A stretch of 64,000 nucleotides of DNA, taken from an uncultured bacterium. Lineage in GTDB: Bacteria > Elusimicrobiota > Elusimicrobia > Elusimicrobiales > Elusimicrobiaceae. Positions 32,695 through 39,107 of this stretch are shown one piece after another. The stretch covers positions 1-64,000 of the forward strand of contig CASFXV010000004.1 in the NCBI GenBank assembly GCA_949298795.1. Direction: 5' to 3'. The first letter of the stretch is position 1. The number at the start of each line of letters is the position of its first letter. The position numbers were made by a program, and so were the translations under genes. The notes under the pieces are model-generated. The model made no database searches and was not told where the DNA came from. It was given only the letters and a program-made list of their open reading frames with translations.

Positions 32695-34689
32695 ATGGAT
32701 TTTAACCCCAAAGAAGAAATTGAACGGCTTAAAAAGCTGGTCAATTACCATAATAACCTTTATTATAACTTGGACAACCCCATCCTGTCCGACACGCAAT
32801 ACGACGAACTTTACAAACAGCTGAAAGATTTAGAAGAAAAATACCCTCAGTTTCGCACCAAAAATTCCCCCACCCAGCGCGTTGGCGGCAAAGCCAGCGG
32901 GTTATTCTCCCCGGTGGTGCACGCCGTGCCCATGATGTCTTTGGATAATTCTTATTCGGCAGACGACATACGGGAATGGCACGCCCGCGCCGCCAAACTG
33001 CTGGGGCGTGCGGATTTTAAAATGGTGGTGGAAGCCAAAATAGACGGCATTTCCTGTTCCCTTACGTATCAAAACGGGCAATTGGTTACCGCCGCCAGCC
33101 GCGGGGACGGCAAAACCGGGGAAGACATCACCCCCAACGTGCTGACGGTGAAAGATATCCCCCATACACTCAACAACGCCCCCTCCACGCCTTTGGAAAT
33201 ACGCGGGGAAATTTACCTGGAAAAAAAAGATTTGCAAATCTTAAATGAAAAACAACGCCTGCTGGGGGAAAATATTTTTGCCAATACGCGCAACGCGGCG
33301 GCGGGGTCTCTGCGGCAAAAAGACGCTTCTGTTACCGCGCAACGCCCGCTTAAATTTTTTGCCCACTCTTTTGGCGCGGGAGACATCGCGGCGGACAGCT
33401 TCAGCGGGTTTATCAGCCTTTGCCGCCAGTGGGGCTTTGCGGTGGGCCCGGTGCGGCTGGAAACCGCTTCCTTAGAAGAAGTTATCTCTTTTTATAATCA
33501 ATTTAACAATACCCGCCACAACCTGCCGTTTGACGTGGACGGGTTGGTAGTAAAAGTAGACTCTTTTGAATGGCAGCGCGTGCTGGGCAACACGGCCAAA
33601 AGCCCGCGCTGGGCCATTGCATTCAAATACCCGGCGGAGCAAGCCACCACAACAGTAAAAGATATTGTTTTTTCCGTAGGCAGAAGCGGCGTGATTACCC
33701 CGGTGGCGGAATTGGAACCTGTGCCTTGCGCGGGGGTGATTATTTCCAACGCCACGCTGCATAATTTTGATGAGATAAAACGCCTGGGCGTGCGCGTGGG
33801 GGACCAAGTAATTATAGAACGCGCCGGGGAAGTAATCCCCAAAGTAATCAAAGTAGCCCAATCTATAGGAACGCAAGAGGTTATTCCTCCGGTACAATGT
33901 CCTTCCTGCGGCGGCACGGTATATAAAGAAGAAGCCGAAGTGGGTTATTATTGCATCAACCCCGCCTGCCCGGCGCAAATACGCGCGCGCATTTTGCATT
34001 TTGCCTCCCGCGGCGCCATGGATATTGAAGGACTGGGCGAAAACGTGGTGGACCAGCTTTTAGAAAAAAAATACATCACAAACTTTACGGATATTTACCG
34101 TTTAACTTTTCTGCATTTGCTAAGCTTGGAAAATTTTAAAGACAAAAAAGCCCAAAACCTCTTAGATGCCATAGAAGCCAGCAAACACCGCACCTTGGCC
34201 CGGCTGTTATTTGCCGTGGGTATTGCGTTTGTAGGGGCCAAAACGGCCGAACTGCTGGCGGACCGTTTCCGCACGCTGGACGCGTTAATGAACGCCTCTT
34301 TGGAAGAATTGCAGGCTATACCGGAAGTGGGGCAAGCCGTTTCCAAAAGCGTGTATGATTTTATGCGGGACCCTAAAGCCCGCCAACAATTAGAAGAACT
34401 GCGCCAAGCGGGGCTGAATTTCACCCAACCGCAAAAACAAATTTCCTCCAATATTTTTGAAGGGAAAACCTTGGTGTTCACCGGCGAACTAACCACCATG
34501 ACGCGTACCCAGGCCGAATTAAAAGCCAAAGAGTACGGCGGAAAAACCAGCGGCAGCGTGTCTAAAAAAACGGCGTATGTGGTGGCCGGGGCGGACGCCG
34601 GAAGCAAATTAAAAAAAGCGCAGGAGCTGGGCGTTGCCGTACTTACGGAACAGGAATTTTTAGACCTGATAGCCGCGGCGGGGAAATAG
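32695..34689 (+). CDS. ligA: NAD-dependent DNA ligase
   Basis: The 664-residue enzyme seals nicks in replication and repair. The Ia domain has [17 protein letters not shown]. The adenylation domain has the catalytic Lys in [11 protein letters not shown] near residue 110 and [15 protein letters not shown]. The OB fold precedes a Cys4 zinc finger (CPSCGG and CINPACPAQ near 404-430). The HhH repeats follow, and a C-terminal BRCT domain (about 585-664) closes the protein. All parts are present. Confidence 0.99.
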
Positions 34690-34749: not shown

Positions 34750-35811
34750 TTAACGCCGTTCTTGCTGAGGCAAAATAATTTGCATATCAAATCCGGCAAA
34801 ACGCCCTTCCTGCCGGTTTTTCCACAACAACAGGCCGGGTTTATAAAATTGCCAGTCTGTAAATTCGTGAAAAATCTCTTGTGAAAACATCTCTTTTCTG
34901 TATCCCGCCACCAAAAAAGAAATAACAAAACTTTCCCGCGGGGAAAAATGCCGTGAAACAGAAAACAGCTCATCCAACATACAATGCCCCGCCCCGGTAT
35001 AAATAAAAAATACGGCGTTTGGATATTGCGCGCGCCACATGTTAATACGTTTCAGCCAATGTGCGTTACGTACCGTTATACCCAATACGCTTGCGCTGAT
35101 GTGCATCCCCACAACATTTTTTACGTAAGTATTTATACAAGCTTCTTCTTCCAATCCCGCGGTTTTAATGCTTCTTTTAGGAAACATAGAAAAGAAACGT
35201 CCTAAATAAAAATTCTCTTCTTTTTCATGCAAAGACAAAAAACGCGGATAAGAATCCGTTGCAAATTCCGTCAGCAAAATCACCTGCCGGTCAGGATACA
35301 TCCGCCGGTAAGCTTGCAGCAAAGAGGCCACCTGTATTTGAATTTTAGGCAGATGATATTCCCCTATAAAAATCATTTTCGCTTGGGAAGGGATTTGCTT
35401 TACCCAATCATTGGCGCCGCCTAAAGGCAAACTGAGCGTATTTTCTAAAACGGCTTGTTTGCGCTGAAGCAAACGGCGGGCTGTTTTTTCTTTAACTAAA
35501 CAACGGGCTAGCGCCAGGCGGTTGCTTTGCTGTACCCAGCCGGCAAGCCAGGGTCCGGCGTCCCTGCCCATAAAATCTTCCGCCAAATCCGTCTGTTCCC
35601 GGTAGGAACGCTGCAGCCAAGCGCGCCTGCCTTTTTGCAACGATTTTTCCACTTGCTGCAAAACCTGGGCGCTTTTGTCTTTGGCAGGCATCCGGGCAGC
35701 TATGGCTTCCGTTCTTTTCAGCATACCCTGCCACTCCTGCGCAGACACGAAAGAACAGGATAACAATAAAAAGAAAAATAAATAAATTTTTACAAAGAAT
35801 ATTCTTCTCAT
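34750..35811 (-). CDS. Secreted Tiki/ChaN-like protein, second of a tandem pair
   Basis: The 353-residue product has a signal peptide ending Val-Ser-Ala near residue 24 and a helical region to about 140. A domain follows that matches the Tiki/TraB/ChaN superfamily pattern: GxxH in FIGEYH (150-153), an acidic residue in LLTEF (182), RNAHW (249-253) and a second GxxH in YTGAGH (273-276). Relatives include haem-binding ChaN and metal-dependent proteases. It shares much of its sequence with the gene 5 bases upstream. Function is unproven; a periplasmic metal- or haem-dependent role is inferred. Confidence 0.75.
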   Translation of the reverse strand: MRRIFFVKIYLFFFLLLSCSFVSAQEWQGMLKRTEAIAARMPAKDKSAQVLQQVEKSLQKGRRAWLQRSYREQTDLAEDFMGRDAGPWLAGWVQQSNRLALARCLVKEKTARRLLQRKQAVLENTLSLPLGGANDWVKQIPSQAKMIFIGEYHLPKIQIQVASLLQAYRRMYPDRQVILLTEFATDSYPRFLSLHEKEENFYLGRFFSMFPKRSIKTAGLEEEACINTYVKNVVGMHISASVLGITVRNAHWLKRINMWRAQYPNAVFFIYTGAGHCMLDELFSVSRHFSPRESFVISFLVAGYRKEMFSQEIFHEFTDWQFYKPGLLLWKNRQEGRFAGFDMQIILPQQERR

Positions 35812-35816
35812 AATTA

Positions 35817-36893
35817 TTAACGCTCTAAATGCTCCGGGCGAAGCAAAATTTGCATGTCAAACCCGGCCAGCCGCGCAAAACGGGAAGATTTCCACGCCAA
35901 CACCCCTTGGCGGAAAAACGTCCCCTGCGTAAAAGCATGAAATAACTCACGCGAATAATATAATTCCGGCTCAAAACGCAACGGCAGCGGCACAAAAGAA
36001 ATAACAAAGCTGTCTTTAAAATTTTGGGACAGGGCGCCGGGATACTCATACGCCACATGGTTATTCCCGGCATAAATAAAAAATACCGCCCGGGGATATA
36101 ATTTGCGCCAATTTTTTATACGCCGTTCCCAATGGGCATTACGCGCCGAAAAACCAGCGGCGCTGTTGCCGATAGGGCCGGAAACCGGCAGGTGAGTGTG
36201 ATCCAACAAAAAAGTTTCCTCCTCCAAACCGGCAAATTGAATGTCGTAAAATTCCAAAAACTCCCTAAAATAATTCAAATAAGCATGCGGAATTCCGTAA
36301 GCGAGTTGAAAATTGGGAAATGAATCCGGCAGAAATTCCGTAAGCAAAATGATTTGTCTCGTCGGATATTTTTCGCGGTATGCCCGCAGCAAATCCTCTA
36401 CACGGTATTGAATATGCTGGTTATGATATTCCCCTATAAAAATCATTTTGCTTTGGGGCGGGATTAAAGACACCCACTTCTCCCCATCGCCTAGCGGCAG
36501 CATGCGCAAATTTTTCAGCAGTTCCTCTTTGTGCTTTTGCAAAAGCCGGGCCCGATGTTCCCACCAAATGCGATTGGCAATGTTTTTTTGGTTAGAACGA
36601 ACGGCCCAGCCATTAGCCAAAGCGCAGGAAGAGCTTTTGCCAAGAGGGAATTCCACATGCGAATAATAATTTTTATAAAACCACGCACGGGACCCGCGGG
36701 TAAAAGCCTTTTCCACCGCCTCTAACTGAAGGGCGGTCTGGCAGGCGGCTTTATATTCCCCGTCTTTTCCCAAAGACCGGCCGGCTTTTTGAGCCGTGCG
36801 CCACGCCCTTTGAACGGCACCCCGCCACTCCTGCGCCGCGGAGCCAACCCCCATACACAACAAAAAACTAAACAAAATGATTTTTTTATTCAT
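35817..36893 (-). CDS. Secreted Tiki/ChaN-like protein, first of a tandem pair
   Basis: The 358-residue product has a signal peptide cut near residue 20 (Gly-Ser-Ala-Ala). It carries the same motif order as its neighbour: GEYH at 154-157, TEF with Glu 186, GLEEE near 222-226, RNAHW at 251-255 and GNNH at 276-279. The tail RLAGFDMQILL is almost identical in both. The downstream copy starts 5 bases after this stop, so they form a two-gene unit that arose by duplication. No clear SD or -10 box is seen before the ATG. Confidence 0.75.
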   Translation of the reverse strand: MNKKIILFSFLLCMGVGSAAQEWRGAVQRAWRTAQKAGRSLGKDGEYKAACQTALQLEAVEKAFTRGSRAWFYKNYYSHVEFPLGKSSSCALANGWAVRSNQKNIANRIWWEHRARLLQKHKEELLKNLRMLPLGDGEKWVSLIPPQSKMIFIGEYHNQHIQYRVEDLLRAYREKYPTRQIILLTEFLPDSFPNFQLAYGIPHAYLNYFREFLEFYDIQFAGLEEETFLLDHTHLPVSGPIGNSAAGFSARNAHWERRIKNWRKLYPRAVFFIYAGNNHVAYEYPGALSQNFKDSFVISFVPLPLRFEPELYYSRELFHAFTQGTFFRQGVLAWKSSRFARLAGFDMQILLRPEHLER

Positions 36894-36930: not shown

Positions 36931-36962
36931 AAAAAACACCGCCGTATTTTGCGGCGGTGTTT
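36931..36962 (-). terminator. Terminator of the M3-coaW-squalene synthase-TPR unit
   Basis: CACCGCCG and CGGCGGTG form an 8-bp stem, extended by A-T pairs, with a T6 exit on the minus strand. Confidence 0.92.
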
Positions 36963-36979
36963 GAAAATATACAGAAGCA

Positions 36980-38314
36980 TTATTCCCAAAGCTCGCCGTC
37001 ATCTGAACAGACGGAATAATCATACAGCTTATACATTTCAACCAACGAATTCTGCGGCACCTGAACCCGTGGATTGCGCCGGGCCTGCGCTTCCATAAAA
37101 TAATAATACGGTATGGTTTTTTTGTCTTCGTTGGAACGGGTTAAAATAAAATAACGTAAATTGTTTTTAGTAACCGCAAGCACATACACGCCCATTTTTT
37201 TACGCAAAGTATCTAAAGAACATTTAGTTTTATTTTCAATATTTTTTAGGTCCGAACGGGATATTTCTATATAACCGGCGCGCTGTAAATTTTGTGCTTG
37301 CTGTTGTACTTTTTGCAAATGTTCTTTGGTGGGGGGAACCGCCTCATGCGGCAGCAAAAACGCTTTGCGGCGCTGAAGCGCTTCGGAAAACACAAAGAAA
37401 CCGCTGTCTGTAAGGGTAGAATCTTTGTTAAAAATTTTATTGCCGCGCATATCACGCAACTCAAAAATGTCCCGCACCGGAACGCCCGCTTTTTGAAAAG
37501 CCTCCACGGCGTCCTGCCCCAATTGTTTTTGCAAGGCTTTATAACCGGTCAGGGTAAGCACTTCACGGGAAAATTCACTGTCCCGGTACAATTCCACCAC
37601 ATAACCGGGCGGCAGCCGGCTGTGTTTGCTTTTTAAATAGGCCACTCCCTGCAGTTGTTCCGCACGGTGAATTTGCGCAAAAAGTTCTTTGTCTTTTTCG
37701 GCCAATTCTTTTTTATCCGGGGCAACGGCATAGCGCTGTTTTAATGCGTCCAGCATTTCCGCATCCGTTAAATAATAGGGTTCCAAGTTAATTAAACGTT
37801 TCCGGGCTACTAAATTAAGCGGTTCCACCGCCAAGGCGGAACGGTACGCGTCCGAAGCGCCCAGCTTATCCCCTTGATATTCCGTAATAACCCCTTTGCC
37901 AACCAAAGAGTTTACATTCGCCGCGTTATAGGTAAGGGATTGATTGTACAGTTTTAGCGCCTCGTCATATTTTTGGCGTTTTAACGCAATATCCCCCAAC
38001 ATAGAATACGTATATGATAAATAAGGGGAATTGCGCTTCATCTTTTTCAACGCGGAGCGAAAATACTTTTCCGCGCCGTTTAAATCTTCCTGCGTAAGCA
38101 ACACCCCCGCCAGGGAAAGCTCCGCGTCCGGCTTGGTTTTGTCTAATTTAATACAACGGGAAAAAGTATCCTGCGCCAACAGATAATCCTGCGCGGCGAA
38201 TTGCTTTTTGCCTTGTTCCATGCAGTCGTCCCACTCCGCGGCAAAACCGTTTGCCGCAAGTAGGAGCGTTAACAAACAAAAACTGGTTTTTTTATAAATT
38301 TCTAAATAATGCAT
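36980..38314 (-). CDS. Secreted TPR-repeat protein
   Basis: The 444-residue product has an N-terminal hydrophobic signal (to about residue 26, Gly-Phe-Ala-Ala). At least four tetratricopeptide units follow (about 30-165), such as AELSLAGVLLTQEDLNGAEKYFRSAL and YSMLGDIALKRQKYDEALKLYNQSL. The last 250 residues have no recognised domain. The ATG at 38314 lies inside the 3' end of the preceding gene. It probably acts as a protein-binding scaffold in the periplasm. TPR protein 46274-47458 is a different type. Confidence 0.78.
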   Translation of the reverse strand: MHYLEIYKKTSFCLLTLLLAANGFAAEWDDCMEQGKKQFAAQDYLLAQDTFSRCIKLDKTKPDAELSLAGVLLTQEDLNGAEKYFRSALKKMKRNSPYLSYTYSMLGDIALKRQKYDEALKLYNQSLTYNAANVNSLVGKGVITEYQGDKLGASDAYRSALAVEPLNLVARKRLINLEPYYLTDAEMLDALKQRYAVAPDKKELAEKDKELFAQIHRAEQLQGVAYLKSKHSRLPPGYVVELYRDSEFSREVLTLTGYKALQKQLGQDAVEAFQKAGVPVRDIFELRDMRGNKIFNKDSTLTDSGFFVFSEALQRRKAFLLPHEAVPPTKEHLQKVQQQAQNLQRAGYIEISRSDLKNIENKTKCSLDTLRKKMGVYVLAVTKNNLRYFILTRSNEDKKTIPYYYFMEAQARRNPRVQVPQNSLVEMYKLYDYSVCSDDGELWE

Positions 38315-39107
38315 ACACAATGTTGGTCAATTTTTCCATACGGGTCAATTTTATTTTATGTTGAAATATAAAGCCCGCTTCTTCTATTTTAGCAAGATTT
38401 GCCCTATATACCCAGCCCATAATGCGGCAAGGCAGCGCCGCACTCCAAGCGCACCCGGCCAAAGCGTCGCCCGCCCGGCTGTACAGCCCGCGGGATATCT
38501 GCGCCAGTTTTGCCAGCACGGCCGCCAGCTGCTGCGGTTTGGTGTTTTCCAGTACGTCTTGAAAAGCAAGGCCTTGTTCCGCCAGCATATCCGCCGGCAA
38601 ATAAACGCGCCCGGCAAGAGCGTCTTCATGCACGTCACGCACGATATTGGTGGTTTGCACGGCCGCCCCAAGCGCCAAAGAAAGAGCTTGCGCTTTTTCT
38701 CCTTTTACGCCTAAAATATCCAAAGTGGCCAGCCCCACCACCACCGCCACGCGGTATAAATACCATTCCAAATCTTTAAACGTGGCGTAGCGGCGGCCTT
38801 GCAGATCGGCCTCCATGCCTTTTATAAGTAATAAAAAGCGGTCCGACGGAATATCAAAATCTTTTACTACCCGTGTTAACGCCCGCCCTAACGGGGTTTG
38901 AGGATTACCCGCATACACGCGGGCGATTTCTTCCCGCCAAAAAAACAGCTGGGCTTGCGGGTCCGGCACGTCAGGTTCATCAGCGATATCATCCATTAAA
39001 CGGCAAAACGCATAATACACGGCCAACGCCTGGCGTTGTTTTTTGTTTAAGAACAAAAACGCCGGCCCAAAGCTGGATTTTTTATATGCGTTGGCGTCTG
39101 CCTTCAT
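38292..39107 (-). CDS. Squalene/phytoene synthase family protein (HpnD-like)
   Basis: The 271-residue protein has the two Asp-rich motifs of head-to-head prenyl synthases: DDIADE (about 38-43) and NIVRDVHEDALAGRVYLP (about 153-170), with YRVAVVVGL between. Such enzymes join two farnesyl or geranylgeranyl diphosphates to make presqualene diphosphate, squalene or phytoene. No desaturase, HpnC, HpnE or cyclase gene is in the window, so the product cannot be stated. It begins 3 bases after coaW and overlaps the TPR gene. Confidence 0.88.
   Translation of the reverse strand: MKADANAYKKSSFGPAFLFLNKKQRQALAVYYAFCRLMDDIADEPDVPDPQAQLFFWREEIARVYAGNPQTPLGRALTRVVKDFDIPSDRFLLLIKGMEADLQGRRYATFKDLEWYLYRVAVVVGLATLDILGVKGEKAQALSLALGAAVQTTNIVRDVHEDALAGRVYLPADMLAEQGLAFQDVLENTKPQQLAAVLAKLAQISRGLYSRAGDALAGCAWSAALPCRIMGWVYRANLAKIEEAGFIFQHKIKLTRMEKLTNIVYALFRNL

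What the first reader, a model, noticed from the sequence alone, without database searches (positions are those of the whole stretch)
34750..36893. Tandem secreted proteins of the Tiki/ChaN fold
Two adjacent paralogues keep two GxxH motifs, a Glu between them, an RNAHW element and a nearly identical tail, within otherwise diverged exported proteins. The clan includes haem-binding ChaN, plasmid TraB and metal-dependent proteases. This subgroup has a long helical N-terminal extension and no known role. It may be a periplasmic haem or metal handling pair.
Basis: partly seen in the sequence, partly recalled or inferred. Interest (0 to 1): 0.55.

Follow-up and report, generated by a model that had tools for sequence, protein, structure and literature searches.

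The report
Fast-evolving family of exported TIKI-fold hydrolases
Two neighbouring genes of a gut bacterium encode exported proteins that keep the active-site residues of a known enzyme superfamily, and they belong to a family of about twenty diverging copies in this small genome, some inside a phage-like gene cluster, so they look like a set of outward-facing enzymes rather than a haem-handling pair.

Summary
Gene A (35817-36893, -) and gene B (34750-35811, -) are 42% identical, apparently exported paralogues with GEYH...E...RNAHW...GxxH. AlphaFold2 plus structure alignment places residues ~125-358 in the TIKI/EreA/ChaN superfamily. The seven most conserved columns of 181 relatives are E155, H157, E186, R251, H279 and two glycines; the five match the 2His/2Glu and Arg of the TIKI endopeptidase RRSP, and 174 of 181 keep all five.

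The 'haem or metal pair' reading is not supported, though untested: ChaN of the phylum mostly carry Trp instead of the Arg, none was found in the genus, and this genome gave no ferrochelatase or TonB-receptor match. Nor is it a pair: this 1.56-Mb genome (Elusimicrobiaceae, by its relatives) holds 20 copies, in arrays at recurrent loci; copy number in the genus runs from 0 to about 30. In 13 species an array lies between terminase and portal genes of a phage-like element. Syntenic orthologues of A and B are 48-57% identical where seven neighbouring genes are 74-99%.

Best reading: exported, quickly diverging hydrolases (probably peptidases), substrate unknown. New variant of a known superfamily.

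The parts
35817..36893 (-). Gene A: exported TIKI-superfamily protein, 358 aa, first gene of the two-gene unit
   Evidence: ORF; AF2 pLDDT 87.4, pTM 0.87; fold match
34750..35811 (-). Gene B: paralogue, 353 aa, second gene (5 bp after A)
   Evidence: ORF; 42% identity to A; profile match E 2.2e-90; not modelled itself
36834..36893 (-). A: signal-peptide-like segment (residues 1-20, ...GSAAQ)
   Evidence: sequence; 128 of 139 relatives have a hydrophobic N-terminal segment by a simple rule, not SignalP
35740..35811 (-). B: signal-peptide-like segment (residues 1-24, ...SFVSAQ)
   Evidence: sequence; same rule
36504..36833 (-). A: N-terminal helical region (residues 21-130)
   Evidence: AF2 of the full protein and of this part alone, pLDDT 82, pTM 0.55, all helix
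36423..36434 (-). A: first GxxH, GEYH (E155, H157)
36336..36338 (-). A: E186, second Glu of the 2His/2Glu site
36129..36143 (-). A: RNAHW 251-255 with the conserved Arg
36057..36068 (-). A: second GxxH, GNNH (H279)
35353..35364 (-). B: first GxxH, GEYH (E151, H153)
35266..35268 (-). B: E182
35056..35070 (-). B: RNAHW 248-252
34984..34995 (-). B: second GxxH, GAGH (H276)
36934..36962 (-). Terminator-like hairpin (11 pairs, 7 GC, T tail) between the upstream TPR gene and A
   Evidence: consensus scan; 8 sites found in the region against a mean of 4.9, sd 2.2, in shuffles, so only suggestive
36980..38320 (-). Flanking TPR protein (context, not part of the family)
   Evidence: neighbour in G005 and G046 too
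32695..34689 (+). Flanking ligA, convergent (context)
   Evidence: neighbour in G005 and G046 too; gene name recalled, not scanned

Best explanation
A and B are exported hydrolases of the TIKI/EreA/ChaN superfamily. After Sec export (inferred), an N-terminal helical region is followed by a TIKI domain whose two Glu and two His activate water and whose Arg positions the substrate, to cut a peptide (most likely) or an ester bond outside the inner membrane. They are two members of a largely genus-restricted family that multiplies by tandem duplication at recurrent loci and diverges quickly while the active site is held. Each copy therefore probably acts on its own, non-self or changing, substrate (peptides or proteins of competitors, phages or the gut host). 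Shown: signal-like N-terminus by a simple rule, predicted fold, intact site residues, family size, faster divergence of A and B than of their neighbours. Inferred: hydrolysis, substrate class, biological target.
For: Fold: AF2 pLDDT 87.4, pTM 0.87. Structure alignment: EreC 6xcq Z 13.1 (199 residues, rmsd 3.5), 2qgm Z 13.0, ChaN 2g5g Z 12.7 (179 residues, rmsd 3.5), HopBA1 5t09 Z 11.0, RRSP 5w6l Z 8.6, PMT 2ebf Z 8.5; unrelated folds start at 7.7. Sequence: PF04187 matches 36 of 54 relatives at E <= 0.1, best 2.8e-7; hhalign to a ChaN profile of the phylum 96.1%, E 2.9e-9 for that one comparison. Site: E155/H157/E186/R251/H279 correspond in order and near spacing to RRSP E3900/H3902/E3930/R4001/H4030, all needed for Ras cleavage in vitro (PMC6254334, passages). 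All five are kept in 174 of 181 relatives (in one of the 174 E and H stand 4 apart), and 4 of the 7 exceptions are one orthologous locus that lost the site. Divergence, same locus against G005/G046: LigA 92-93%, Fumble-like kinase 95%, TPR 81-86%, SQS_PSY 74% identical, but A 53-57% and B 48% (dN 0.37-0.48 against 0.03-0.20). Family: 20 copies in 1.56 Mb.
Against: ChaN itself keeps E/H, E and H (invariant in 23 of 23), so the 2His/2Glu residues alone do not tell an enzyme from a haem binder; the Arg is the one discriminating residue, and it rests on an alignment and one paper. In that paper two of the four site mutants (E3900, H3902) kept some activity in cells, and PMT has the fold without the site. 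No member has been assayed. The structural matches share 7-14% identity, and Foldseek alone gives only two hits at E <= 0.001. dS of A and B is 1.5-2.2, near saturation, so no positive selection was shown; dN/dS is about 0.22-0.26. One neighbour, SQS_PSY, is also only 74% identical. At one locus 4 of 5 orthologues have a dead site, so a role without catalysis exists in the family.
Confidence: 0.55

Rival explanations
1. Haem- or metal-binding proteins that work like ChaN: exported carriers that scavenge haem or a metal.
For: ChaN is among the four best rows by structure (Z 12.7), is the closest Pfam family, and keeps the same two His and two Glu.
Against: No TonB-receptor barrel and no ferrochelatase match in this genome at E <= 0.001 (the 14 control genomes ring in 3 and 8; the assembly is 92% complete, and only these two markers were sought). 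No PF04187 match at E <= 1e-8 in any genome of the genus in a sample of 149 genomes of the phylum. Twenty copies, two of them shown to diverge fast, are odd for a haem carrier. Trp/Arg difference at the site. The haem ligand of ChaN was not tested.
Confidence: 0.12
2. Peptide-shutdown proteins that work like TraB/PrgY: each copy destroys one peptide signal or bacteriocin, own or foreign, outside the cell.
For: PrgY is described as a membrane-localised peptidase, similar to human Tiki, thought to degrade endogenous pheromone (PMC7117660, passages). A multi-copy, diverging set fits many peptides.
Against: No PF01963 match at E <= 1e-8 in 99 genomes of the phylum. No gene for a peptide signal was recognised beside A and B, but none was searched for systematically. 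This is a special case of the best explanation without direct support.
Confidence: 0.15
3. Binding proteins rather than enzymes: surface decoys or variable antigens (or superinfection-exclusion proteins) on a TIKI scaffold.
For: Faster divergence than neighbours, variable copy number, arrays in a phage-like element, and an orthologous locus with a dead site.
Against: The catalytic-type residues are the most conserved columns of the family, which a mere scaffold would not need. No PADLOC match.
Confidence: 0.13
4. Effector-like proteins that act on eukaryotic cells of the gut, as HopBA1- and RRSP-type TIKI domains do.
For: Those are structural relatives (Z 11.0 and 8.6).
Against: A Sec-type start; no delivery domain seen in the model; no injection apparatus was searched for. 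Resemblance is at superfamily level only.
Confidence: 0.05

Closest known systems
ChaN / Pfam PF04187 Cofac_haem_bdg (PDB 2g5g)
   Same: Fold (Z 12.7), GExH, Glu and GxxH in register; nearest Pfam family
   Different: Arg251-Asn in place of the Trp found in 23 of 26 ChaN-type proteins of the phylum; extra N-terminal helical region; multi-copy; window proteins below the Pfam cut-off
Erythromycin esterase family EreC/Bcr135 and relatives (PF05139; PDB 6xcq, 6xcs, 3b55, 2rad, 2qgm)
   Same: Highest structural scores (Z 12.2-13.1); a His-Glu pair (H85/E113 of Bcr135, PMC6254334, passages)
   Different: 12-14% identity; no PF05139 match in 149 genomes of the phylum at E <= 1e-8 and none for A or B. 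That 2qgm is Bcr136 is recalled
TIKI/TraB/PrgY peptidases and RRSP
   Same: 2His/2Glu plus Arg in the same order and near-identical spacing as RRSP
   Different: No PF01963 match at E <= 1e-8 in 99 genomes; substrate and delivery unknown

Membership tests
[quoted passage not shown]
   AF2 model and structure alignment: the first 13 VIA rows are EreC, Bcr135-type, ChaN, HopBA1, RRSP-type and PMT entries; two of them (6a7h, 6a8j) are titled only as bacterial protein toxins and taken as RRSP by their residue numbers
TIKI/EreA/ChaN superfamily | Two GxxH motifs and a conserved Glu | tested here: met
   174 of 181 relatives keep E155, H157, E186, R251 and H279; both window proteins do
ChaN (PF04187) | Score above the curated Pfam cut-off (27.7 bits) | tested here: not met
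   A: 14 bits, E 0.051; B: not listed. One own-genome paralogue reaches 28.4 bits with its neighbours in the frame
ChaN (PF04187) | Site residues of ChaN of the phylum, including the Trp at the Arg251 position | tested here: not met
   Arg invariant in A3; Trp invariant in the 23 rows of A4, aligned by hhalign. Three of 26 ChaN-type proteins (L160:2132-3349, L170, L171) were left out of A4; with them Trp is 23 of 26
ChaN (PF04187) | Cofacial haem binding by a dimer | not testable with these tools
   needs protein
Catalytic TIKI hydrolases | 2His/2Glu plus conserved basic residue | tested here: met
Catalytic TIKI hydrolases | Hydrolysis of a peptide or ester bond | not testable with these tools
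   needs protein
TraB/PrgY/GumN (PF01963) | Match to the family profile | tested here: not met
   no match at E <= 1e-8 in G000 or 98 other genomes; no Pfam listing for A or B up to E 5
Erythromycin esterase (PF05139) | Match to the family profile | tested here: not met
   no match at E <= 1e-8 in 149 genomes; no Pfam listing for A or B up to E 5
Known anti-phage defence proteins | Match in PADLOC-DB | tested here: not met
   0 of 6 proteins (A, B and the four own copies in the phage-like element) at E <= 0.1

The most novel reading that the evidence does not exclude
The family is the diversifying, exported enzyme arm of a domesticated phage-like element (a candidate gene transfer agent) of this gut genus. 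The element was captured once and is kept in nearly all species. In at least 13 of them its late gene cluster carries one to eight or so TIKI-type genes between terminase and portal, and copies such as A and B are offshoots seeded at chromosomal loci, acting on envelopes or peptides of kin or rivals during particle release or DNA exchange.
Probability: 0.12. Interest if true: 0.8.

Novelty: new variant of a known kind. Interest (0 to 1): 0.55.

Why it matters
A 1.5-Mb gut bacterium that keeps some twenty genes for exported, diverging TIKI-fold proteins with the active-site residues intact would give a natural library of specificities for a superfamily in which, to my knowledge, few bacterial substrates are known. 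The link of the same family to a phage-like element kept in nearly every sampled species of the genus makes a testable connection between exported hydrolases and phage-derived particles in the little-studied Elusimicrobiota.

Tried and rejected
Single-protein search: phmmer against PDB chains gave only noise (8pq7, E 1.9), and the family profile likewise. NCBIfam gave no match for A or B. tblastn of A against phage and plasmid records: no match at E <= 1. The viral-contig scan with the broad alignment found no relative (one loose pattern, so weak evidence of absence). N-terminal region alone: Foldseek best E 2.7 and VIA best Z 6.4, within the range of chance for helices, so no fold is claimed. 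Solved TraB/PrgY/Tiki structures were not among the structural rows; that excludes nothing. A weak LprI hit of B (E 0.34) was dropped. N-terminal-only matches of the family profile to other exported proteins were taken as signal-peptide or compositional likeness and not counted as members. A count of intact sites on an alignment cut to the last 250 residues (160 of 181) was replaced by one on whole proteins (174 of 181). Before both, 9 of 190 collected members were dropped because they were under 270 aa or their profile match ended early. The 190 come from 27 genomes chosen because they had matches, not at random. Papers: the listings showed me no paper on this family or on a gene transfer agent of Elusimicrobiota; one search was badly posed, and the library lacks most subscription journals.

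Full report
WHAT IS THERE. The window carries two leftward ORFs 5 bp apart: A (35817-36893, 358 aa) and then B (34750-35811, 353 aa), 42% identical over their length (E 2e-79). A terminator-like hairpin at 36934-36962 lies between the upstream TPR gene and A, and ligA converges from the other side, so A-B looks like one two-gene unit (inferred). Both start with a signal-peptide-like segment ending ...AQ. By a simple rule, not SignalP, 128 of 139 relatives have a hydrophobic N-terminus, 80 an A-x-A-Q-like site and 3 a lipobox pattern.

FOLD. A 54-sequence alignment (A3) gave an AlphaFold2 model of A with pLDDT 87.4 and pTM 0.87: N-terminal helices, then an alternating beta/alpha domain. VIA-align ranks EreC 6xcq (Z 13.1), 2qgm (13.0), ChaN 2g5g (12.7), Bcr135 3b55 (12.2), HopBA1 (11.0), RRSP 5w6l (8.6) and PMT 2ebf (8.5) above every unrelated fold, which start at 7.7; the matches mostly span residues 125-358, at 7-14% identity. 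Foldseek alone is weaker: two hits at E <= 0.001, EreC (6e-4) and Bcr135 (9e-4). PF04187 (ChaN) touches A with 14 bits, under its cut-off of 27.7, and 36 of 54 relatives at E <= 0.1, best 2.8e-7. hhalign between the family and 23 ChaN of the phylum gives 96.1%, E 2.9e-9 for that one comparison, with GExH, Glu and GxxH in register. The N-terminal part folded alone (pLDDT 82, pTM 0.55) is all helix with no significant structural match. B was not modelled.

ACTIVE SITE. In 181 relatives the seven most conserved of 358 columns are R251, E186, H279, G276, H157, G154 and E155. RRSP, a TIKI endopeptidase, needs E3900, H3902, E3930, H4030 and also R4001 for cleavage in vitro; in cells the E3900 and H3902 mutants kept some activity; PMT has the fold without the site (PMC6254334, passages). 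Order and spacing agree: E-x-H in RRSP and in 180 of 181; H to E 28 in RRSP and 29-30 in 172 of 181; E to Arg 71 in RRSP, 65 in A and variable in the family; Arg to His 29 in RRSP, 28 in 129 of 181 and 32 in 40. All five are kept in 174 of 181 (one of these, the C2 copy of this genome, has E and H 4 apart). Four of the seven exceptions are orthologues at one locus (comEC/deaminase side to a nagZ-anmK-murQ-ampG-like run, gene names recalled from the sequences) in G007, G021, G024 and G029; in this genome the copy at that locus is intact. The other three are in G000 (C13), G003 and G009. A caution: ChaN also keep E/H, E and H (23 of 23); what they lack is the Arg, with Trp in 23 of the 26 ChaN-type proteins found. 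I left the other three (L160:2132-3349, L170, L171) out of the ChaN profile; L171, from G179, itself resembles this family (RN..W).

A FAMILY, NOT A PAIR. The genome (1.56 Mb, 37 contigs, 92% complete) gives 23 matches to the family profile at E <= 0.01; three cover only the first 70-103 of 396 positions and are set aside, leaving 20 copies: contig C4 six, C7 six, C8 four, C13 two, C14 and C2 one each. In the genus 40 of 61 genomes match A at E <= 1e-3, with 0 to 33 matches (some matches are pieces: the 33 of G003 are 27 by profile). In the phylum 37 of 247 genomes and 3 of 76 genera match at E <= 1e-5: 35 of 46 genomes of the own genus and one each of two other genera of the same family (only about seven candidates per genome were scored there, so it shows presence, not number). 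The genome itself is unnamed. Named relatives are mostly Elusimicrobiales, Elusimicrobiaceae or Elusimicrobium metagenome assemblies, two titles naming rumen (23 loci). No relative was found in phage or plasmid records.

RECURRENT LOCI, VARIABLE COPY NUMBER. Members sit at recurrent places: rplK-rplA-[1 to about 6 copies]-trypsin-like protein-obg; birA/tilS side to uvrB side [2-4]; the comEC locus [1]; and the window's ligA-[1-2]-TPR (most gene names recalled from sequence). On a FastTree of the last 250 residues the window copies and those at the same place in G005 and G046 form one clade (support 0.96), sister to the birA-uvrB clade (0.94 for the two together). A pairs with one G046 copy and B with the other (residues 144-302: 62% and 59%), so the duplication is older than these species.

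RAPID DIVERGENCE. At the very same locus, compared with G005/G046, LigA is 92.9/91.9% identical, NusB 93.4/89.7, IF3 98.3/98.9, the Fumble-like kinase 95.0/94.6, the peptidase c41 94.0/92.4 (partial), TPR 86.0/81.2, SQS_PSY 74.2/73.8, but A is 57.1/53.4 and B 48.0 (G046 only; G005 has one copy there). dN is 0.37-0.48 for A and B against 0.005-0.20 for the neighbours. At the rplA-obg locus, where RplA of G000 and G048 are identical, the six own copies find best matches of 36-83% in G048, the trypsin-like neighbour 85% (best matches need not be orthologues). dS of A and B is near saturation, so this shows faster amino-acid change, not positive selection.

PHAGE-LIKE ELEMENT. The four C8 copies lie between a large terminase and a head-tail adaptor (portal-type) gene, followed by a protease/scaffold-like protein, major capsid and tail genes (PHROGs: phrog_2 E 1.5e-47, phrog_332 6.8e-136, phrog_458 1.7e-31, phrog_212 4.5e-62, phrog_376 4.3e-179). 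The capsid protein is 40% identical to that of Burkholderia phage BcepC6B; all 90 phage records matched are under 60%. Both flanks of the array were seen in 13 genomes (G000, G003, G021, G024, G028, G029, G031, G035, G046, G048, G050, G093, G220; in G029, G035 and G093 across two adjoining stretches). By nearest neighbour 61 of 190 collected members are in the element; two more arrays (G007, G012) were counted as 'other' but group with it in the tree. The capsid gene is present in 57 of 61 genomes of the genus (32 of 34 that are at least 90% complete and at most 5% contaminated), 84-99% identical for the main copy; G010 gave only a fragment, and G007, G026 and G050 have a second, more divergent copy. 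It was in 0 of the 15 sampled genomes of other genera of the family; four genomes of another family match at 29-33%. In the eight pairs compared, capsid divergence is of the order of that of Obg or RplA, while portal and terminase diverge more. The element has at least two or three chromosomal surroundings. No integrase or replication gene was recognised, but none was searched for systematically; in G035 an M15 peptidase (PF13539, E 2.1e-7) and a small ORF without a Pfam match follow. In 20 further genomes of the genus only one (G031) has a family member between terminase and portal (in G030 no terminase was seen in the stretch). None of 26 related viral contigs holds a member; in the three with capsids 67% identical and both genes present, terminase and portal stand without one between them. 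So the array looks like an addition to a widely kept element. That the element is a gene transfer agent is a hypothesis only.

MECHANISM AND LIMITS. Signal-like start, fold, intact 2His/2Glu/Arg residues, tandem multiplication and rapid divergence together favour exported hydrolases with changing substrates (0.55). Haem or metal carriage (0.12) is weakened by the missing TonB-receptor barrel and ferrochelatase matches (incomplete genome, two markers only) and by family size and rate, but no haem-binding residue of ChaN was tested. TraB/PrgY-like peptide shutdown (0.15; PMC7117660, passages) and non-enzymatic surface variation (0.13) remain open. A Tiki/TraB peptidase and an erythromycin-esterase homologue near RiPP genes have been noted elsewhere (PMC8939145, passages), which fits peptide substrates but is no evidence here.

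Noticed in passing
L132 (G000:C8:1-20000), L135-L137, L139-L142, L144-L149, L241-L260: A phage-like cluster (terminases, portal, capsid, tail, M15 peptidase) whose capsid gene is in 57 of 61 genomes of the genus, main copy 84-99% identical: a candidate domesticated phage or gene transfer agent; no integrase recognised, none searched for systematically. In nine genomes it follows a GspE/GspF/pseudopilin-like operon (names recalled).
   Followed up: partly
L051:4234-5241, L055:5268-6284, L060:5737-6747, L063:4827-5846: Orthologous family members beside a nagZ-anmK-murQ-ampG-like run (names recalled) that lost the first GxxH and the second His but keep the GFDAQ tail; the copy at the same place in this genome is intact.
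   Followed up: partly
L029:2340-3350 and nine other loci: A trypsin-like exported protein (PF00089 E 2.9e-8 for L029; the others by BLAST clustering) lies beside the family genes at the rplA-obg locus in all ten loci where it was seen.
   Followed up: no
L177:476-1456 (G000:C18): A protein with a signal-like start whose N-terminus resembles that of the family (E 2e-6); its middle recalls ADP-ribosyltransferases by eye only, no Pfam match.
   Followed up: no
L133:2-427, L134:6776-7264, L139:3-686 and others: Short type IV pilin-like genes (by eye) scattered near the arrays and the phage-like element, in G011, G015 and G059 even between terminase and portal.
   Followed up: no
L184:3128-6115 (G090:C1, single contig of 1,643,562 bases): Three tandem distant relatives in another genus of the family; the contig length is that of Elusimicrobium minutum as I recall it, which would give a cultured source.
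   Followed up: no
L171 / L185:3553-4566 (G179:C3): A protein of another genus that scores over the PF04187 cut-off (E 5.7e-9) yet has the RN..W of this family: a possible link between ChaN and the family.
   Followed up: no
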